A stretch of 33,898 bases of DNA. Origin: an uncultured Eubacterium sp. Its GTDB lineage: Bacteria; Bacillota_I; Bacilli_A; Erysipelotrichales; Erysipelotrichaceae. The DNA lies in the NCBI GenBank assembly GCA_904395785.1, contig CAJFOG010000191.1, positions 1-33,898 on the forward strand, given 5' to 3'. A model generated the notes under the pieces. That model saw only the letters and a program-made list of their open reading frames with translations, made no database searches and was not told where the DNA came from. The position numbers and the translations under genes are program-made. This document shows, in pieces, positions 8,099-33,898 of this stretch (position 1 is the first letter of the stretch; every line of letters starts with the position of its first letter).

Positions 8099-9439
8099 TT
8101 ATGATAATTTAGTTAGATTAAAAATCCATTTTAACCAACATCTGACAGATTGCGATCTTCTTACTATTTGACTCTCGTTACATACATTCAACTCTCTCAT
8201 TCTTGTTTGTATTACTCCTTTTTCAGGTAACTCTCCAAAATTTTCAATAATGAAATCAAAAAATTCTAAGAAAATTTGATGTTCAAGAATAAGCGATACA
8301 AGTTTAAGTTGTCTTTGCTTATACTGCATTTTATATACCTTTTTACCTAATTTAGTTAATATGGATTTTATTTCATTTTCTTCTGTCTTAACCTTCTCAA
8401 ATAAACCCAAATATTTTCCTGCGTTATAATAATATTGTGATTGTCTATATACTGGTTTCCCCTTATTCAAATTTGATCCAAAATGCATTAATTCTGCTAT
8501 TTCTTGATCATTCATAGGATTTTCATACATATTCTCTAACAATGATATAACACGTTCAAATGAATCAGCTTGTACAAATGGAGGAATATCTTGATTATCT
8601 TGGTTATCATCATACTTAACTATTGTATTATTTCTAACCTCCATTAAATCATCTAATGTAATTTCTGTATCTTGAAGTGAATAATTTTTATTCTTAACTA
8701 ACCTAATTGAAGAATAATCATTTATATCAGTAAACTCATATTCAAATAGACGATATATTTTATTTGAATAAATAGAAAAAACTAATCGAATAGGTTTAGT
8801 AACTTTACTCTTCCATAGCCTAAACGGATAATACAGTTGTCTAATATGAAAATCAGGATGGATTACATTTTTAGCCTCCATTATCACTATTGAATCAGAA
8901 TTTTCAAATCCTCCATCAATCTCACATTGAGCATTATTAACGACCAAGTGTTGCTTTACTCCACGATACGTATTAACATCAAACTCAAATTTTCCTGTCC
9001 CCATTCGTCCATTGAATGTACTAACATTTTCATCTGTCTCTAGAAAATCATCTAAAATATTTGAAATAATTAATACATTAATTGCATTAGCTTCTGAGGA
9101 AATGTTATCTATATCAATACTCTCATATTCTGGTATTTCAACAGAGGTCATTCGGGTAACATGTTCTTCAAGCTCTGGAATATCTTGATATAAAATAAAA
9201 TCACCTAATACATATGAACGTCTACTATCCGGTAAAATATTAATTTTATGCTTCTTAAAAGCAGATGGAAGTTGCTCCGAACTATCCCATTTTGACATTA
9301 ATCTTGGTTCTTTAAACTCTTTAATTTGCGATGCTTCAATATGAAAAATTCCATCTTCTTGTATTTTCTTTACTATATCATATTTTTCTATCAACTTTTC
9401 CCAAGCTTCATCAACAGATATTTCTTTATTCTTTATCAT
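8099..9439 (-). CDS. Putative type II restriction endonuclease (PD-(D/E)xK-like)
   Basis: CEIDGGFENSDSIVIMEAKN resembles a PD-(D/E)xK core (D...EAK); overlaps the upstream MTase by 14 nt. Confidence 0.72.
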   Translation of the reverse strand: MIKNKEISVDEAWEKLIEKYDIVKKIQEDGIFHIEASQIKEFKEPRLMSKWDSSEQLPSAFKKHKINILPDSRRSYVLGDFILYQDIPELEEHVTRMTSVEIPEYESIDIDNISSEANAINVLIISNILDDFLETDENVSTFNGRMGTGKFEFDVNTYRGVKQHLVVNNAQCEIDGGFENSDSIVIMEAKNVIHPDFHIRQLYYPFRLWKSKVTKPIRLVFSIYSNKIYRLFEYEFTDINDYSSIRLVKNKNYSLQDTEITLDDLMEVRNNTIVKYDDNQDNQDIPPFVQADSFERVISLLENMYENPMNDQEIAELMHFGSNLNKGKPVYRQSQYYYNAGKYLGLFEKVKTEENEIKSILTKLGKKVYKMQYKQRQLKLVSLILEHQIFLEFFDFIIENFGELPEKGVIQTRMRELNVCNESQIVRRSQSVRCWLKWIFNLTKLS

Positions 9440-10280
9440 AATTATATATTAACACCTCGTTTATTTCTCCTCTTAAATTACCTTTACTATTAATTGATCT
9501 CTTTGCTTTAATAATTTTTATTTTATAGTCTTTATATAACTCACGAATAAATTCGCAATCAGAATTTGACTGTAAAAATTTAATCCCTTTTTTATTTAAT
9601 TTATCACACTCATTTTTTAACTCTATCTGTTTTTCTTCATTAAAACCATTTTCTGTATAACCTGTAAATGATGCAGAACTCGATATTGGCATATAGGGTG
9701 GATCTAAATAAACAAAATCTCCTCTTCTTAATTTTTCTAAAGTTTTTTTATAATCTCCATTTATTATTTGTATATTTTTGTTTTTAAAATAATTAGACAT
9801 TGCCCTAATTACGGGTTCATTCACAATATTTGGATTCTTATATTTCCCATAAGGAGTGTTAAATTGTCCAGAAGAATTCACTCTATATAATCCATTATAA
9901 CACGTTTTATTTAGATAAATAATTCTTGCAGCTCTTTGTACACTAGTCATTTGAGAATAAAACTCAGTATCTCTATCATACTCTCTTACTTTATAAAAAT
10001 GCTCTGATGTATTTCTTTCTTTATGATAATTTAATTGCTTAATTAATTCATCCGGTTTATCTCTTATAACTGTATATACATTTATTAATTCTATATTATA
10101 GTCATTTATAATTGCATTTTCAGGTTGCAATTCAAACAACAATGCTCCTCCTCCAATAAATGGTTCCACATAATTAGAGTATTTATTTGGAATCATTGGT
10201 ATAATATCTCCTAGCAATTGTCTTTTTCCTCCAACCCATTTAAGTACCGGACTTAATATCAAGTTTTTTTTATTTTTCAT
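9426..10280 (-). CDS. DNA adenine methyltransferase (Dam/D12 class)
   Basis: LKWVGGKRQLL, VEPFIGGGALLFEL (FxGxG) and VYLDPPY motifs. Confidence 0.92.
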   Translation of the reverse strand: MKNKKNLILSPVLKWVGGKRQLLGDIIPMIPNKYSNYVEPFIGGGALLFELQPENAIINDYNIELINVYTVIRDKPDELIKQLNYHKERNTSEHFYKVREYDRDTEFYSQMTSVQRAARIIYLNKTCYNGLYRVNSSGQFNTPYGKYKNPNIVNEPVIRAMSNYFKNKNIQIINGDYKKTLEKLRRGDFVYLDPPYMPISSSASFTGYTENGFNEEKQIELKNECDKLNKKGIKFLQSNSDCEFIRELYKDYKIKIIKAKRSINSKGNLRGEINEVLIYNYDKE

Positions 10281-10422
10281 CTATTACACTCCTTTCTATT
10301 AACTGTGCTATTTTAACATAACATTTTAAAAAAATACAAACTTAGTAATAAAATTTTTACTTTTTTATTAAAATTGATTTTTTTTATTTTTAATTCGTAA
10401 AAAATAATAGGAGGTGTATTAT

Positions 10423-11139
10423 ATGCAAAAATATAATTTACAGAAAACAACTATTTGGCGTTTTACAAATAGAGGTCATTGGGCTACACATAAAGGTGAT
10501 TACAGAGGTAATTGGTCTCCACATATTCCAAGAAATTTAATTTTAAAATACACTAAGCCCCATGATACTGTTCTAGACTGCTTTATTGGATCAGGTACGA
10601 CATTAATTGAAACAAAACTTTTGAATAGAAATGGTATTGGTATAGACATAAATGCTAATGCAATCGATATTACGAAAAAAAGAACTCAATTTAGCATCAA
10701 CAATTCAGCTAATATAAAATTATTCTTAGGTGATGCACAAAATCTGAATATGATTAAAAACAATTCCATTGATTTCATATGTACTCATCCACCATACGCA
10801 AATATTATTAAATATAGTGATAATTTAATAAACGATTTATCTATATTAAACCATACAGAATTTTTAAAAGGAATGAAAAAAGTCAGTAAAGAACTTTATC
10901 GAGTGTTAAAACCATCACATAAATGTTCTTTTATGATTGGTGATATTAGAAAAGATGGAAATGTTATTCCTCTAGGTTTTCTTACTATGCAATGTTTCAT
11001 AGAAAATAATTTCAAACTAAAAGAAATCATTATTAAAGAACAACATAACTGCACATCGACACCTTTTTGGCTAGAAAAAATCGATAAGATAAATTTTTAC
11101 TTACTAGCACATGAATACATTTTTGTTTTTGTTAAATAA
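10423..11139 (+). CDS. DNA methyltransferase, N4/N6 amino class, motif I before motif IV
   Basis: VLDCFIGSGTTLIE...GIGIDINANAI then FICTHPPYANIIKYSD; ggaggtg RBS before ATG 10423 (ORF track starts at GTG 10414). Confidence 0.83.
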   Translation: MQKYNLQKTTIWRFTNRGHWATHKGDYRGNWSPHIPRNLILKYTKPHDTVLDCFIGSGTTLIETKLLNRNGIGIDINANAIDITKKRTQFSINNSANIKLFLGDAQNLNMIKNNSIDFICTHPPYANIIKYSDNLINDLSILNHTEFLKGMKKVSKELYRVLKPSHKCSFMIGDIRKDGNVIPLGFLTMQCFIENNFKLKEIIIKEQHNCTSTPFWLEKIDKINFYLLAHEYIFVFVK

Positions 11140-12751: not shown

Positions 12752-12985
12752 AAAAAAGCTCTTATCCACATAGGGACGAGAGCTTTCATCGTGGTACCAC
12801 CCTAATTCGTCTATAGATTACCCTATAGACCTTAGTGACTTATGATAAGTCCATTCGTAACGTGAATGTATACGTCCTGTTGGAAGGCTCCAAGTCTTTA
12901 TTTCAATGAATACTCCACTATCCCTTTCCAGCAATCGGGACTCTCTGTTAGCTTCCTAATCATTTACTCTCTCTTCATCGCCATA
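12752..12985 (-). promoter_or_regulatory. T-box leader of lysS (antiterminator T-box sequence plus terminator)
   Basis: Minus strand AGGGTGGTACCACG (12790-12803) followed by terminator AAAGCTCTCGTCCCTATGTGGATAAGAGCTTTTTT (12752-12786); upstream AGAGAG/stem I-like region; promoter TTGACA-18-TATAAT just upstream. Confidence 0.93.
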
Positions 12986-13130
12986 TGATTAATAATTATA
13001 GTATATGTAAAAAACGTTTGTCAAATAAGAACAATAGGAAATTATTTAGAATTTCGATTCTTTGTATGTTCTTATATAAGATATACATACAACCCCTGTT
13101 ATAAGGTTATACTTTATAATCTTACTAGAA

Positions 13131-13480
13131 CGATATTAAATCTTCCATTTTATAAACAGTATACCCCTCATAATAATAACTAGCATCAATACCTTTCATA
13201 TAAACATCTCAATCATTGATTTTATCTGTGAGTGCTTGTTTCAATAAAACTTTTATTTCTAAATCTTTACCTGTCTTATCTTTCCTGCAAATTCATAAAT
13301 CTCATCAAAAAGATATTGATGAATGAGTGATAATCCTTTAAATGTTCCAACTTCAAATGTATCTAATAACCCTGTTTCAAAAAGTTCAAGAGCTTTTGTT
13401 TTACTTATTTTTTCTTCCATCTTCATAAATTCTACTTCATTATGAATAAATAACTTATTTTCTAAAAATACGATATTCAC
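13131..13480 (-). pseudogene. Fic/DOC family pseudogene with internal deletion of the catalytic core
   Basis: ORF 13259-13480 encodes a Fic N-terminal region (FKGLSLIHQYLFDEIYEFAGKIRQVKI); a downstream piece in another frame reads DLEIKVLLKQALTDKIND-stop-DVYMKGIDASYYYEGYTVYKMEDL, which looks like a Fic C-terminus; no HPFxxGNGR in between. Confidence 0.75.
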
Positions 13481-13530
13481 CCTTTCATTTTCTAAACAAG
13501 ATATGTTTTCTTATTTATGCATCATGTGTA

Positions 13531-16150: not shown

Positions 16151-16656
16151 TTATCTCTGTGAGTCTGAATTAAACAACGAACGTATCCATATTACAACTA
16201 AATAAAGAGTTAGTATAATAAAAAGTATGATAATAGTTATATATTTAGAAAGATCTTGCTTTCCTTTTAAATACGTTTCTTGATAAAGTTCATCAAATAT
16301 TTCATATGCTTTATAACCTTTATAATTACTATACAGATTATCACTTTTTTTTAAATCATAGACTCCTTTTTTATATGCTTCCTTTACTATACTTTCTTCT
16401 ATTTGAGCAAGTTCATCTTTTTATAAAACTCTCTATATTTTTGCTGAAAACAGCTCTTTTCATCTTCAGTTTCTCCCTTTGAATAATCCTGCATCATCTC
16501 ATAATTCCATACATCTTTTTCGGCATATTCTTCTGCATTTTTTTCTAATTGTGGTTGAAGATTACAAAAATCATTCTCTGTTTCTAAACTCTTTGCTGAT
16601 ATAGATACATCAAATATAGATATAAATATTATTACTAAAATAATTATTTGTTTCAT
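16151..16656 (-). other. Secreted/membrane small protein gene split by a frameshift (signal peptide, charged ectodomain, C-terminal TM)
   Basis: ORF 16399-16656 (85 aa, MKQIIILVIIFISIF signal-like) ends ...REFYKKMNLLK*; the -1 frame continues from the A-run as ...DELAQIEESIVKEAYKKGVYDLKKSDNLYSNYKGYKAYEIFDELYQETYLKGKQDLSKYITIIILFIILTLYLVVIWIRSLFNSDSQR*, stop at 16151. Confidence 0.65.
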
Positions 16657-16659
16657 TTT

Positions 16660-18396
16660 TTAAAACCTCACATCCTCCATAAAAAGTTCTTTTAATTTTA
16701 CTTTTAAATTTTCATATTCTTCCTTCTTCATTATATTTTCTATGTTTAACACTTGCTGTAAAAAATATTTCGTATCTCTAAAATTGGCCTTAAAATTGTT
16801 TGGAAAATAGTATGTTATTATTTCTTTTAATAATCTTAATCTATATTCATCATCCTTATCAGATAACAGCAATAATTTATATGTGGCAAAACAAATTGAT
16901 TGTAGAAATAAAACTATGGATTGTTTTTCATTGAATTTATCTGCTATTTCATTTATAAAAATTTTATTTTTTAAATCATTGTAGATTTGATTTCCGTCTC
17001 TTCCTTCTAAATTTTCTTTCTTAATTATCTCTTCTGAGCTTAACGAAATAATTCCCAACGGTCTTGTAAATCTATAGTTACTGTTCACGCAACTACACAC
17101 CCTTAAAACATTCTGATAAGCATCACTCGACATCCTATCAATATCCTCAATTACTAACATAAGCTGATTTTTTCTTACCATTTTAAGAAGATGATAAATG
17201 TAATAATCTTGATGAAATTTACTTGAATCTTTTTGATTAATAATTATTTGATATAAATATTTACAAACAAAAATCCAAATTATTATCGTGAATAAAAAAA
17301 CTTCCAAAATTGTTAAAACATCTATACTATAATCATTTGCCAATTCAAATATGTTCATAATAATAGTGTCAAAAATAGATTTGTCTATTTCAAAGCCTAT
17401 ATTCAAATATCTAAATATTACATATATTATACTGCCTATATAATCAATATAGCTTATCAGAAAAGATGAAACAGCTCCTATAATAATGAATACTATTATT
17501 AACGCTGACTTATGGTTCATATAAGATTTCATTTTAGAATATTGAAGCGCTTTCATATACATTAAATATAGGAAGTCTTCATCATAATTAGCTTCCCAAG
17601 GTGAAATTCTAACTGGAGTATAATTATGATTCATACACAATATTCTATCATATGTTGTTTTTCCATTACCGTATTCCCCATCATGATATAACCATTTCGA
17701 TTCTAGCTTTATTGGTGAATTCAATTCAGCACTTATATCTATATTTTTTAAATTATATAAATAAGAATTACCTAAAAGCGAAAAAATATTTTTTACTTCT
17801 ACATTTTTTCTTAATTCTTTAATAGGAAATAATGAACACACTCTATAACACTGTTCTACTGAATATTTACTTATAAATATCTCATCATATTTATTATTAA
17901 CATCAATATAAATAATCGCTTTTTTACGATAAACTTTTCCATTTACTTTATAACTGACCAACACCTTAATTTTATGATTCTCTATTACATTATTCTTAAT
18001 ATTAATAAAATGTTTATGTAGACTAAAGTAAAAATACTTTTTCTTTCTATCTCTATTCGTTGATAACACTGTATGAAATTGATTCAATACAAATACTTCA
18101 CAATCTATTGCATTCTCTGGAAAAAAGTTCTCCATGTTTATTTTAAAAATCCTCGAATCATAAAAGCTGAAAAAATAATTTGAATAATAAATTTTTGATT
18201 GAATAATATCGTCATAATCTAAATTCAAAAATTCGATACTGATATTATTATAACTTTTTTTTAAAAAATTAAATCCTATGTAAAACGAGCATATAAAAAA
18301 TATAACCATTAATACATCTCTTAGTATGCTACCTTCATTAGTGTCCACATCAATCAATGTAAATAAATAAATAAAGCAAACTATTATTAACGACAA
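16660..18396 (-). CDS. KAP-family P-loop NTPase with TM segments inserted between Walker A and Walker B
   Basis: Walker A GEYGNGKTT; Walker B-like LMLVIEDIDRM (KAP-type EDIDR); hydrophobic segments between them (ALIIVFIIIGAVSSFLISYI, VFLFTIIIWIFVCKYLY); two more TMs at the N-terminus. The TTG start is doubtful (see finding). Confidence 0.78.
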   Translation of the reverse strand: MSLIIVCFIYLFTLIDVDTNEGSILRDVLMVIFFICSFYIGFNFLKKSYNNISIEFLNLDYDDIIQSKIYYSNYFFSFYDSRIFKINMENFFPENAIDCEVFVLNQFHTVLSTNRDRKKKYFYFSLHKHFINIKNNVIENHKIKVLVSYKVNGKVYRKKAIIYIDVNNKYDEIFISKYSVEQCYRVCSLFPIKELRKNVEVKNIFSLLGNSYLYNLKNIDISAELNSPIKLESKWLYHDGEYGNGKTTYDRILCMNHNYTPVRISPWEANYDEDFLYLMYMKALQYSKMKSYMNHKSALIIVFIIIGAVSSFLISYIDYIGSIIYVIFRYLNIGFEIDKSIFDTIIMNIFELANDYSIDVLTILEVFLFTIIIWIFVCKYLYQIIINQKDSSKFHQDYYIYHLLKMVRKNQLMLVIEDIDRMSSDAYQNVLRVCSCVNSNYRFTRPLGIISLSSEEIIKKENLEGRDGNQIYNDLKNKIFINEIADKFNEKQSIVLFLQSICFATYKLLLLSDKDDEYRLRLLKEIITYYFPNNFKANFRDTKYFLQQVLNIENIMKKEEYENLKVKLKELFMEDVRF

Positions 18397-18437
18397 AATT
18401 ATACAATAATAATACCTTGAAAAAGGATCATCTTTTT

Positions 18438-18923
18438 TTAAGTATTTATAATTTTTTTTATAACAGGTTCTCTATGATTTACACAAAAAATAAAAAAACT
18501 AAACAACAATCCCATTATATAAAAAATAAACAAAATTGTTATATCTTCTAAATTTAAGCTTTTAAAAACAAATTCTTCTATACCTAAACTTACTAACAAA
18601 ATAAAAGAACAGTTAAATAATATATTTTTTATTAGAATCCTTAAATTTTTGCTAAATATATTATAATTAGATACTACAAAGAACGATCCTATTAATGCTA
18701 CAAAAAAAGATATAATTTTTTTTACATAATCCCCATATAATCCATATAAATTTAATAAAGATATATTCAAAACTCTTTTGTCAAAAAATACAAATAATAT
18801 AAGAAACACTATTAAAACAAATGATTTTTCATGTTTTAAATATAACAATCTATTTATCATGATATCTGTTTTTTTTGAGATAATATTTTTCTTTAAATTA
18901 AAACCATTGAAAACTAGTTCCAT
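18438..18923 (-). CDS. Four-TM membrane protein, probable N-terminal part of the KAP NTPase
   Basis: 161 aa with about 4 hydrophobic segments; the KAP frame opens inside its 3' end without an ATG; in-frame A AAA AAA heptamer at 18453-18459. Confidence 0.6.
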   Translation of the reverse strand: MELVFNGFNLKKNIISKKTDIMINRLLYLKHEKSFVLIVFLILFVFFDKRVLNISLLNLYGLYGDYVKKIISFFVALIGSFFVVSNYNIFSKNLRILIKNILFNCSFILLVSLGIEEFVFKSLNLEDITILFIFYIMGLLFSFFIFCVNHREPVIKKIINT

Positions 18924-19545
18924 TTTTATGTTTTTTTATTTCTATATTTTCATTCAATATATCAAATTTGAAAAAGTCTTTTAAAAATTTTTGTACTTTA
19001 CCTACTAAATTTACTATATTTGAATCCCTTTGCTCTAATAATTTAACTTGGAGTTTTGAAAATTCTGTAATATAGTACACATTGTTTTCAATCAATTGTT
19101 CTTTAACACTCTCTATAAACTCCTCATCGATTATATAATCCAAAATTTTTATTTCATTATTACTATATTTGCAATTAATTACAATAAACGAAATTTCCTT
19201 TTTACTAAAAAAATCACATTTCACTGTTACTTTAAATTCTTGCTTTTCTATAATAACCTTAATTTTATTTTTATAGTGTTTACTTCTTATTCTATCAAAT
19301 AATTTAAATCGCCTAAACTTCATTAAATTATCTAAATTATAACATAATAATTGTTCTAAATTATCTATAGATATAAAGTCATTAAAACTATCTAAGTCTA
19401 CATCTAAATGTTGCAAATTTTGTATAATTAAATTCATTTTTTCATCAAATAATATCTTTTTCAAATAATTATATTGATTACACTTAATGTTTACTAAATT
19501 TAATTCTGTACTAACCATATTCTGATTCTTTTTCTTATTAAACAT
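18898..19545 (-). CDS. Hypothetical cytosolic protein, first gene of the KAP module
   Basis: 215 aa, RBS-like AAGGATGG upstream of ATG; overlaps the next ORF by 26 nt; no recognised domain. Confidence 0.7.
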   Translation of the reverse strand: MFNKKKNQNMVSTELNLVNIKCNQYNYLKKILFDEKMNLIIQNLQHLDVDLDSFNDFISIDNLEQLLCYNLDNLMKFRRFKLFDRIRSKHYKNKIKVIIEKQEFKVTVKCDFFSKKEISFIVINCKYSNNEIKILDYIIDEEFIESVKEQLIENNVYYITEFSKLQVKLLEQRDSNIVNLVGKVQKFLKDFFKFDILNENIEIKKHKNGTSFQWF

Positions 19546-20086: not shown

Positions 20087-20117
20087 TGTAGATACTTAGG
20101 CATCTACGTCTTTTTTT
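20083..20117 (+). terminator. Terminator of the Nudix gene, inside the 3' end of the convergent helicase gene
   Basis: GATGTAGAT-acttaggc-ATCTACGTC followed by TTTTTTT. Confidence 0.65.
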
Positions 20118-22933
20118 ATTTCAACCTTATTTATGAACTCTTCGTATAAGTCAGCAGGTAATGTATATTCTAACTTCGTCTTTACAGTAATTGGTTGATT
20201 ACCTTCAAACTCTTTCGCATCGACTCTTCCTAAATAAATATATGGCTGTACTACTCCATCAATTTGTTTAAACTTACGTACAAATAAGTGTAGGTTTATA
20301 CCTCTTTCTTTATTATATATAATATTTTTCCCTTGTTCAGATTGCTGTTTTGTTTTATTTGGTGTTTGCCATTGAAAAAACTTTCTGCTGATAAATTTAT
20401 CTTTATAATTAATCGATTCTTTAATATCACTTTCTTTATGTAAATCGACAAACAAAAAATATTCATTTCCTGATGTCATTAACCCACTCCCTCTAAATGA
20501 TGAATGGATTTTTCTATAATTTGTTAATAGCGCTACTTCTTGCATAGAATATTGTGCATATAACTTTAAAAATGGTATTCCATAATACGCTTCTTCGAAT
20601 TCTTTACGATATCTATTTAAACCATAATGTAAAATATCTAATATATACTCTTTCTTTTCTATATCACTTAATATTTCATGCATGATATCATTTAGTATTA
20701 TATTTTTACCATCGAATACAGCCAATTGGTTCCATCTATTTTTTTGACTACTATCATAATAATTATAATTTAGTGTTTCCATAGCATGACAAACACTATC
20801 ATTATCCACATACTCTATTACTTTTAATATGGATTGTTTGCACATATCTTCACTCATTTCTTTTTGAAATATTAAATCTAATAAAATTTGAAATTCATGT
20901 GGTCTTTTCAAGGGTAACATATCTGACAAGTATTTCATTGCTTTTATAAATTCTTGATCAGTAATCATTAATTTGAATATATTATCTTTTTCTACTTTTG
21001 ATAAAAATTGGAGATATGTTCCTTCCTTACGTATAAATTTCATAGGATCTGGTGCACCTTCATATTTTATATAATCCATTAAATTCTTTGGTATCCTTCC
21101 TTGAAGTAGTGCTTTAAATGATAAATACTCTTCTTTTAAATATTTCATTGAATTAAAATTTTCATTTTCTAACTGACGTAATATGCGTTCTTTTGAAATC
21201 TTATCTAATTGAATAAATGTATCACCCGGTATGTTTGTAAAATCATTATTTACAGACACTTTTAAACTATCCTTATCATAATATCTACTACCTTTTAATG
21301 CTACTGCAATTAGAAATGCTCTATTATGATTACCTATAAAATCTAGCACTGTTAAGTATTCTTTATTTTTATATTTTCTTAATCCCCTACCCAATTGTTG
21401 AATAAAAATAATAGGTGAATTTGTAGGTCTTAACATTAATACTAAATTGACTGATGGGATATCTACCCCTTCATTAAAAATATCCACAGTAAAAATGACT
21501 TCTAATTCATCATGTTCATTTTCTAACCTTTGGATATACGTTTGGCGTTTTTCTGCTGAATCACTACCAGTCAAACAAACACTTGTTATCCCTCTTTTAT
21601 TAAATTCATCACACATAAATTGTGCATGATCAATGTTTACACAAAATCCTAAACATTTTCTTTTCTCTCCATCAAAGCCATATAAATTCATTTGCTTAAT
21701 AATATAATCTACACGTTGATTAAGTTTTAATGCTTTTGCTACAGATGTAATATCTTCAATATTTACTCCTTCTAAATTAACTTCTTCAATATCTGCAATC
21801 CCAAAATAATGAAAAGGTACAACCAACTCTTCTTCCATTGCATCATGAAGTCTTACTTCAATCGCAACATTATTATCAAATAATTCATAAATATCTGCTT
21901 TATCGCAACGTTCAGGTGTCGCAGTCATTCCTAACAAAAATTTAGGTTGAAAATATTGTAATACTTTTAAATAAGTGTCCCCAGATGCATGATGTGCTTC
22001 ATCAACTACAATATAATCAAACTCATCTCTATCAAACATGTCATAATAACGATGTAATGTCTGTATTGTGGAAAATAGATAATCCACATGATCTTCTTTC
22101 TTTTTCCCTGTCAAAAAACCAGTATGTAATTTCGAACCTATTACATTTTTAAAAGACTGTTCAGCTTTCATAAGAATTTCTTCTCTATGTACAATAAATA
22201 ACATTTTTTTAGGTTTGTATTGTTTTACATCAAAGGCACTCATATATGTTTTTCCTGTTCCTGTCGCAGCTACCACCAATGCTCTTTTTTCACCATAACT
22301 ACGCAACTTATGTAAATTGGATATAGCTCTTTGTTGCATACTATTTGGCTGTATTTCATAAGAGTATTTAAAATGTTGTATTTGTTTTTTTTGATTATGT
22401 TCTCTAATTGTTCGCAAAAATAACTCATATTCATTTAAGAAATCTTCACTTACTTCACTTAAATTATCCCAAATACTCATAAATTCATCCATTACATCTA
22501 AAATAAAAGGATCATCTCTTTTGGAAATAACTTTCACATTCCACTCTATATTGCTTTTTAATGCACTTGCAGTAATATTAGAAGAACCTATAATTACTTT
22601 AAAACAATCCTCATATTCAAATAAATATGCTTTGGAATGAAATCCTTTCTTTTTTACATCATCGTATACCTTCATATCTACATTTTCAAATGAATTAAGT
22701 TTCTTTAATGCTTTGGGATCAGAAAAATTTAGATATGTTGATGTAATAACTTTTCCACGAATACCCTTTTGATTTAATTCATCTAATAGCCTAACAAATA
22801 ACTGTAAACCACTATAATTTATAAATGCCACATTAAAGTAAAATCTTTTACAAGTTTCTAATGAATTTTTTAACTCTTGAAACACTGTACTTTCATAATT
22901 ATTTAATATTAATGTATTTCTTTCTTGAAGCAT
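20096..22933 (-). CDS. PLD-like nuclease + DEAD/DEAH (SF2) helicase, DUF3427-type
   Basis: N-terminal HSKAYLF...GSSNITASAL (HxK-type PLD); VAATGTGKTYMSA Walker A; VVDEAHH; GMTATPER; QQLGRGLRK motif VI. Confidence 0.9.
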   Translation of the reverse strand: MLQERNTLILNNYESTVFQELKNSLETCKRFYFNVAFINYSGLQLFVRLLDELNQKGIRGKVITSTYLNFSDPKALKKLNSFENVDMKVYDDVKKKGFHSKAYLFEYEDCFKVIIGSSNITASALKSNIEWNVKVISKRDDPFILDVMDEFMSIWDNLSEVSEDFLNEYELFLRTIREHNQKKQIQHFKYSYEIQPNSMQQRAISNLHKLRSYGEKRALVVAATGTGKTYMSAFDVKQYKPKKMLFIVHREEILMKAEQSFKNVIGSKLHTGFLTGKKKEDHVDYLFSTIQTLHRYYDMFDRDEFDYIVVDEAHHASGDTYLKVLQYFQPKFLLGMTATPERCDKADIYELFDNNVAIEVRLHDAMEEELVVPFHYFGIADIEEVNLEGVNIEDITSVAKALKLNQRVDYIIKQMNLYGFDGEKRKCLGFCVNIDHAQFMCDEFNKRGITSVCLTGSDSAEKRQTYIQRLENEHDELEVIFTVDIFNEGVDIPSVNLVLMLRPTNSPIIFIQQLGRGLRKYKNKEYLTVLDFIGNHNRAFLIAVALKGSRYYDKDSLKVSVNNDFTNIPGDTFIQLDKISKERILRQLENENFNSMKYLKEEYLSFKALLQGRIPKNLMDYIKYEGAPDPMKFIRKEGTYLQFLSKVEKDNIFKLMITDQEFIKAMKYLSDMLPLKRPHEFQILLDLIFQKEMSEDMCKQSILKVIEYVDNDSVCHAMETLNYNYYDSSQKNRWNQLAVFDGKNIILNDIMHEILSDIEKKEYILDILHYGLNRYRKEFEEAYYGIPFLKLYAQYSMQEVALLTNYRKIHSSFRGSGLMTSGNEYFLFVDLHKESDIKESINYKDKFISRKFFQWQTPNKTKQQSEQGKNIIYNKERGINLHLFVRKFKQIDGVVQPYIYLGRVDAKEFEGNQPITVKTKLEYTLPADLYEEFINKVEIKKDVDA

Positions 22934-30756: not shown

Positions 30757-31597
30757 TTATTCTCTGTTTAATCTATTAATATGTATCATCAAAAACGACA
30801 TTTCTTCATCTGTAATAAGCTTTTTATACTTATCGTATAAATAATGTTTTACTTTATTTGCAACTTCACTTTCTAGCACATATCTTTTTTTATGTTGTAG
30901 ATAAAAATTTTCGTCATTATCTTCCAACATTTTATTTGTAAAAAAAACGCTCTACAAAAAATCTAACATGAGTTACAAACCGAACATAATGTATACTGTC
31001 TTTACTCAAATCTTTATTTAATGCATACTGAACGATATGCACAATATCTCCTATAAGTTTCACGTATCTAGCACTATCATACTCTAGATTATCTGTTGCT
31101 TGCGCATTCACTAAATGAAATGCAATATTCACTGCTTCTTCTTCAGGTAAATGTATATGCATTGTATGATTGATAATTTCCAAACATTTTAACGCAACAT
31201 CTTATTCTTTTGTATAAAAACTTTGAATTTCCCAACTTAATCTATTCGTTATCATCATTTTTTTATGATATCTTTCTATCGCAAAATTCAAATGATCTGC
31301 AAGTACAAAATAAACATTGTCATTAAAGTCCGTCTGCAATATATTTTTCGCTGTTTTTAATACTTGGCTTGTTAAGTTTAATACATCTTGTGAAATCGCA
31401 CTTAACAATTCTATTACTTGTCTTGATTTATCATGTGTAATCGGAATAAACAATTGACATTGCTCAAAATTCACATTAATTTCTTGACCAGCCTTACGTC
31501 CATATCCTATTCCCTTTTCCAATAAAATAAACTCTTTTTGTTCATCATCTTCTGTTAAAACTACACTGGAATTTAATACTTTTTTAATTCTGGTCAT
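30757..31597 (-). pseudogene. BglG/LicT-family antiterminator (CAT-RBD + 2 PRDs), disrupted
   Basis: 31202-31597 encodes MTRIKKVLNSSVVLTEDDEQKEFILLEKGIGYGRKAGQEI...; in-frame TAA after FYTKE; PRD continues as DVALKCLEIINHTMHIHLPEEEAVNIAFHLVNAQ; T8 run at VERFF causes a second break; the tail NKMLEDNDENFYLQHKKRYVLESEVANKVKHYLYDKYKKLITDEEMSFLMIHINRLNRE* is in another frame. Confidence 0.88.
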
Positions 31598-31607
31598 ACA
31601 ATTCCTC

Positions 31608-33898
<2,291 letters not shown>

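What the first reader, a model, noticed from the sequence alone, without database searches (positions are those of the whole stretch)
16151..19545. Unfamiliar membrane KAP-type NTPase module in an accessory island
A compact minus-strand cluster: cytosolic 215-aa protein, 4-TM protein, KAP-like P-loop NTPase (GEYGNGKTT, LMLVIEDIDRM, TMs inserted between Walker A and B), and a signal-peptide/C-terminal-TM protein. Genes overlap or abut: 26-nt overlap between the first two; the last starts 3 nt after the KAP stop, with its RBS inside KAP coding sequence. KAP NTPases are known from anti-phage contexts such as PifA. The neighbours (Nudix, PLD-helicase, a nearby R-M cassette) fit a defence island. 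The beta-rich region between the N-terminal TMs and Walker A, the 215-aa protein and the ectodomain protein match no family I recognise.
Basis: partly seen in the sequence, partly recalled or inferred. Interest (0 to 1): 0.8.

Follow-up and report, generated by a model that had tools for sequence, protein, structure and literature searches.

The report
Broken membrane KAP-type ATPase gene
What looked like a new four-gene anti-virus module is really one gene for a rare membrane-bound ATPase, broken by a one-base frameshift, lying between two unrelated genes; its relatives in other bacteria stand alone, so the module is not real, although the ATPase is a new branch of a family known to fight phages.

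Summary
The ORFs, motifs and overlaps described are real, but the "compact four-gene module" is not. (1) The 161-aa 4-TM protein and the KAP protein are two halves of ONE gene: intact relatives (755 aa in Beduini massiliensis, 706 aa in genome G007) have both in one frame, and joining the window halves gives 753 aa. The window copy is split by a -1 frameshift at an A8 run; a third relative (Breznakia pachnodae) is split elsewhere. (2) The signal-peptide protein is also two frames (85+89 codons) of one gene. (3) The 215-aa and signal-peptide proteins have no detectable relative. The NTPase core is KAP-like: profile alignment over 185 columns with PifA/KAP (95.9%) and 204 with Tmn/YobI (88.6%), against 10-11 columns for other P-loop NTPases; yet no Pfam, NCBIfam, PHROG or PADLOC model recognises it. 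It is a rare new subfamily (4 genomes, Erysipelotrichales) with six N-terminal TM helices and a beta-rich region. Defence is plausible by kinship only. Here it is most likely a recent pseudogene; two other genes in the window are also decayed.

The parts
16660..18923 (-). one broken gene for a membrane KAP-type NTPase (about 753 aa if joined): 6 N-terminal TM helices, beta-rich region, Walker A, SPW motif, two TM helices, Walker B, NFRD motif
   Evidence: Intact relatives of 755 and 706 aa in one frame; joined length 753; same TM and motif order in all four; profile match to PifA/KAP
18438..18923 (-). 161-aa ORF = TM helices 1-4 of the KAP gene, ends prematurely after the frameshift
   Evidence: the family profile continues into this frame, E 9.2e-47 (the window copy was a member of that profile)
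18452..18459 (.). A8 run (minus strand) where the frame is lost; one A too few (or two too many)
   Evidence: frames, homopolymer list; also contains an in-frame A AAA AAA heptamer
16660..18471 (-). 603-codon open frame with TM 5-6, beta-rich region and KAP NTPase core; no plausible start with Shine-Dalgarno of its own
17653..17685 (-). Walker A region HDGEYGNGKTT
   Evidence: sequence; invariant G.GK in relatives
17131..17163 (-). Walker B region LMLVIEDIDRM, invariant ED.DR in relatives
18898..19545 (-). 215-aa orphan protein with a good Shine-Dalgarno (AAGGATGGGATACAATG); no relative found; co-directional, possibly co-transcribed
16151..16656 (-). second broken gene: signal peptide, about 110-aa ectodomain, C-terminal TM; frames 16399-16656 and 16151-16420 split at an A5 run (16418-16422)
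   Evidence: no relative found

Best explanation
The core of the finding is a single accessory gene for a membrane-embedded KAP-type P-loop NTPase, which in this genome has recently lost its reading frame. In the intact form (seen in relatives) the protein has six N-terminal TM helices, then a beta-rich region, then an ATPase of KAP order (Walker A, SPW motif, two inserted TM helices, Walker B). Since the ATPase must be cytosolic and no TM lies between them, the beta-rich region is cytosolic too. Inferred mechanism: the beta-rich region or the C-terminus senses an infection-related cue, ATP binding or hydrolysis rearranges the eight-helix membrane bundle, and the membrane is compromised or phage development blocked, as for PifA- and Tmn-type proteins. 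Sporadic presence, solitary location and repeated frame loss fit a gene that is useful now and then but costly. Shown: single gene, frameshift, KAP kinship, rarity. Inferred: defence role, mechanism, and that the break inactivates it. The 215-aa and signal-peptide genes are unrelated or lineage-specific neighbours.
For: Relatives encode both parts in one frame: 755 aa and 706 aa (open frames of 755 and 725 codons); joined window length 753. Conserved motif order and TM pattern in all four. NTPase core aligns with PifA/KAP over 185 columns (prob 95.9, score 71.3; best of 20 column shuffles 28.6) and with Tmn/YobI over 204 columns (88.6, score 54.0; shuffles 21.8); ABC and other P-loop profiles match only the 10-11 residue Walker A (prob 11-25). 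PifA also has ISPW after Walker A. Another relative carries a different frameshift. Solitary in three other genomes with housekeeping flanks. Decay of other genes in the same window: antiterminator with TAA at 31204 plus a frameshift, Fic remnant. Tmn is a KAP-family NTPase with two TM domains and anti-phage activity (PMC11846954).
Against: No strain of the same species is available, so an assembly error at the A8 run is not excluded. Pfam KAP_NTPase (PF07693) does not hit the protein, and structure models were too poor to confirm the fold (mean pLDDT 49.5 and 60.7; no significant Foldseek match). The PifA/KAP profile also scores well against other P-loop profiles, so the placement among KAP, Tmn/YobI and other AAA-like families is not fully resolved. 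No direct evidence for phage defence.
Confidence: 0.6

Rival explanations
1. The frameshift is an assembly or sequencing error and the gene is intact and working in the cell.
For: Both breaks in the cluster are one missing A in A-runs, the classic homopolymer error; the frames on either side have no other damage.
Against: The other conserved genes of the window are unbroken apart from one antiterminator that also has a true in-frame TAA and the Fic relic; A5 is a short run for such an error; a relative in another genome is broken at a site without a long run.
Confidence: 0.25
2. Programmed -1 ribosomal frameshifting or RNA-polymerase slippage at the A8 run makes both a 161-aa 4-TM protein and the full 753-aa NTPase from one gene.
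For: In-frame A AAA AAA heptamer at the break; slippage at A11 rescues tssM of Citrobacter rodentium and a Yersinia tssM3 with A9 behaves likewise (PMC4256274).
Against: Such heptamers occur in frame in many unbroken genes of the window and five times in the 161-aa frame alone; intact relatives are continuous here; the Breznakia break is elsewhere and not at such a site; the second break (A5, T AAA AAG) is a poor slip site.
Confidence: 0.08
3. One reading: a four-component membrane defence operon (215-aa protein, 4-TM protein, KAP NTPase, ectodomain protein).
For: Same strand, tight spacing and overlaps; low GC shared by the stretch; R-M and PLD-helicase genes nearby.
Against: The 4-TM 'protein' is part of the KAP protein; no relative of the outer two genes and no co-occurrence at three other KAP loci.
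Confidence: 0.05
4. The NTPase has a non-defence role in the envelope (for instance organising membrane receptors, as is thought for the eukaryotic KAP protein Kidins220).
For: In the three relatives the flanking genes are metabolic or housekeeping.
Against: Found in 4 of 316 order genomes, absent from plasmids, phages and viral contigs, frame lost in two of four: not a housekeeping pattern.
Confidence: 0.2

Closest known systems
PifA of plasmid F (KAP-family NTPase, phage exclusion)
   Same: KAP motif order: Walker A, ISPW/SPW motif, inserted segment, Walker B ending in DR; 185-column profile alignment, 95.9%
   Different: Walker B ED.DR instead of DDLDR; six N-terminal TM helices and a beta-rich region before Walker A, while PifA has Walker A near its N-terminus; the PADLOC PifA model does not recognise it (one relative's fragment at E 0.013)
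Tmn / TmnA (anti-phage transmembrane ATPase) and YobI-type ATPases (PF20693)
   Same: GxYGxGK[ST] Walker A, two clear TM helices between Walker A and B, [FI]ED.DR Walker B; 204-column profile alignment, 88.6%
   Different: Tmn/YobI have Walker A near the N-terminus, no N-terminal TM block, no SPW motif and a long C-terminal part (over 1150 aa in all); neither PADLOC Tmn nor PF20693 hits the window protein
QatA (KAP ATPase of the Qat system)
   Same: KAP-type ATPase of a defence system; the PADLOC QatA model also matches PifA
   Different: QatA model does not match here and no other Qat gene lies in the cluster

Membership tests
KAP P-loop NTPase superfamily | KAP-type Walker A and B with profile similarity over the whole ATPase core | tested here: met
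   hhalign core against PifA/KAP, 185 columns, 95.9%, score 71 against shuffles at most 28.6; other P-loop families match only 10-11 columns
KAP P-loop NTPase superfamily | TM helices inserted between Walker A and Walker B | tested here: met
   two hydrophobic segments between the motifs in all four members
Pfam KAP_NTPase (PF07693) | Recognised by the family model | tested here: not met
   no hit for window or relatives; so a divergent relative, not a member of the Pfam family as now defined
KAP P-loop NTPase superfamily | Common three-dimensional fold | tested here: inconclusive
   models at mean pLDDT 49.5 and 60.7, no Foldseek match at E <= 0.001
PifA phage-exclusion system | PADLOC PifA model; pifC-pifA operon | tested here: not met
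   no PADLOC hit for the window protein; no pifC-like neighbour among annotated ORFs
Tmn anti-phage system | PADLOC Tmn model; single protein of about 1200 aa with N-terminal ATPase | tested here: not met
   control proteins hit PDLC02220, window and relatives do not
Qat system | QatA together with QatB, QatC, QatD | tested here: not met
   no Qat hit among the cluster ORFs
Conserved multi-gene defence system | Partner genes co-occur with the KAP gene | tested here: not met
   absent at three other KAP loci and in the 295 and 245 genomes searched
Anti-phage defence | Protects a host from phages | not testable with these tools
   needs expression of an intact copy and a phage panel

The most novel reading that the evidence does not exclude
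A new single-gene membrane KAP defence family of Erysipelotrichales whose expression is switched by slippage or length change at an A-tract: A9 (or slipped RNA) gives the full NTPase, A8 gives a 4-TM fragment, so that a costly defence protein is made by only part of the population.
Probability: 0.06. Interest if true: 0.65.

Novelty: new variant of a known kind. Interest (0 to 1): 0.3.

Why it matters
It shows that a would-be four-gene defence module is one decayed gene plus unrelated neighbours, which prevents a false system from being proposed. What remains of value is an unrecognised branch near PifA/KAP and Tmn/YobI ATPases, with its own N-terminal membrane block and beta-rich region, for which intact copies exist (Beduini massiliensis and one other genome) and can be tested directly against phages.

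Tried and rejected
Homologues in plasmids and phages and viral contigs: none. Class- and phylum-wide genome samples: none beyond the order. PDB sequence search: nothing. AlphaFold2 of the full length and of the core, then Foldseek against PDB and viral models: low confidence, no significant match; non-significant top hits of the full model include several AAA-type ATPases. The sub-threshold YidC (60KD_IMP) match of the 85-aa frame (E 4.5e-5, 23.9 bits against a cut-off of 35) was rejected: below cut-off, and it covers only the signal peptide and a K/E-rich stretch. The BrxB hit of the 215-aa protein (E 0.046) was rejected as chance. Programmed frameshifting was considered and put low. Empty-site comparison with the same-genus genome G001: hslO-dusB conserved at 77% DNA identity but the DNA upstream wholly different, so the stretch is variable, but no clean insertion boundary could be drawn.

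Full report
What is there. At about 20% GC a stop is expected in one codon of ten, so the 603-codon frame has a chance probability near 6e-29 and the 215-aa frame near 6e-11: these are coding sequences, not chance.

The 4-TM protein and the KAP protein are one gene. A protein search in 195 related genomes found two strong relatives, each in one open frame: 725 codons (706 aa from ATG) in G007 and 755 in G145. G145 is Beduini massiliensis, and a third relative, G198, is Breznakia pachnodae. Joining the window's 161-aa and 603-codon frames at the A8 run gives 753 aa, with the same order of six N-terminal TM helices, beta-rich region, Walker A, SPW, two TM helices, Walker B and NFRD motif. The 578-aa ORF has no Shine-Dalgarno in front of its TTG. 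G198 also has the gene in two frames (553 + 236 aa), broken at another place, between the two TM helices inserted in the ATPase. The signal-peptide protein is broken too: 85 codons, then a -1 frame of 89 codons that has no start of its own near its beginning and carries the C-terminal TM.

Why the break is probably real. A homopolymer error is possible, since each break is one A short in an A-run. But two other genes in the window are decayed by more than run-length changes: an antiterminator (30757-31621) has an in-frame TAA at 31202-31204 as well as a frameshift at a T8 run, and a Fic-like gene (13125-13510) is reduced to its two ends with stops. The KAP frames on both sides are otherwise clean, so the loss would be recent. 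Programmed frameshifting is unlikely: in-frame A AAA AAA or T TTT TTY heptamers occur in many unbroken genes of the window and five times in the 161-aa frame alone, and intact relatives are continuous at the site. Precedent for rescue by RNA-polymerase slippage exists at A11 and A9 (PMC4256274), so it is kept as a minor rival.

No module. Neither the 215-aa protein (295 genomes, plasmids, phages, viral contigs) nor the signal-peptide protein (245 genomes, plasmids, viral contigs) has any relative found. In the other three genomes the KAP gene stands alone: next to an FMN/FAD oxidoreductase, a DUF815 ATPase and amino-acid genes (G007), beside folate and purine genes and a C39-like peptidase gene (Beduini), and beside hydrogenase-maturation genes and an HI0933-like flavoprotein (Breznakia). 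PADLOC sees no defence gene among the flanking genes apart from a deaminase-type match. The family was found in 4 of 316 order genomes and in no genome outside the order in samples of 395 and 392 genomes (one marginal 17.8-bit TM-only hit within the family ignored).

What the protein is. No library model reaches it, and the Pfam KAP model misses it. Profile comparison of the four ATPase cores aligns them over 185 columns with PifA/KAP (probability 95.9, score 71.3, best of 20 column shuffles 28.6) and over 204 columns with Tmn/YobI (88.6, 54.0, shuffles 21.8), matching Walker A, inserted TMs and Walker B in order. ABC and other P-loop profiles match the query only at the 10-11 Walker A residues. 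The SPW motif after Walker A is shared with PifA (ISPW); the clear TM pair, the GxYGxGK and the ED.DR are shared with Tmn/YobI. So KAP-type is right, as a divergent branch of its own. Finer placement is open, since the KAP profile also scores well against other P-loop profiles and structure prediction gave only low-confidence models.

How it would work. The ATPase must be cytosolic and no TM lies between it and the beta-rich region, so that region is cytosolic; it is the best candidate for a sensor or regulator. By kinship with PifA (established knowledge) and Tmn (a KAP-family NTPase with two TM domains, mechanism still unknown; PMC11846954), ATP-driven rearrangement of the membrane bundle in response to infection is the most likely action. 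This step is inference only.

Setting in this window. The cluster is the most AT-rich part and lies between tpx and a mutT/PLD-helicase pair; a type II R-M cassette (8099-11139) and a SoFic-like Fic protein (176-1249) lie 5-15 kb away. The same-genus genome G001 has quite different DNA upstream of hslO.

Verdict. One rare, divergent KAP-type membrane ATPase gene, probably broken here, with unrelated neighbours. New variant of a known kind; interest 0.3.

Noticed in passing
window 30757-31621 (-): LicT/BglG-type antiterminator (CAT_RBD + PRD) is a pseudogene: in-frame TAA at 31202-31204 and a frameshift in a T8 run at 30940-30947, next to an intact beta-glucosidase gene.
   Followed up: partly
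window 13125-13510 (-): Fic-like gene apparently reduced to its N-terminal and C-terminal ends with stops; a degraded relic between dusB and lysS (recognised by eye, no Pfam hit).
   Followed up: partly
window 8099-11139: Type II R-M cassette: DUF6996/DUF6997/DUF7226 restriction protein and D12 methyltransferase on the minus strand, an N6/N4 methyltransferase on the plus strand; 5-8 kb from the KAP gene.
   Followed up: partly
window 20096-22933 (-): 945-aa PLD + superfamily-2 helicase + DUF3427 protein, strong match to PADLOC mREase_IV (E 5.5e-169), directly beside a MutT-like Nudix gene; intact.
   Followed up: no
L021 7284-9628 (Breznakia pachnodae): The KAP relative is split by an independent frameshift between the two TM helices inserted in the ATPase; repeated loss suggests the gene is costly or only sometimes useful.
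   Followed up: partly
window 12780-12970 (-): Upstream of lysS a T-box-like leader (AGGGTGGTACCACG) is visible.
   Followed up: no
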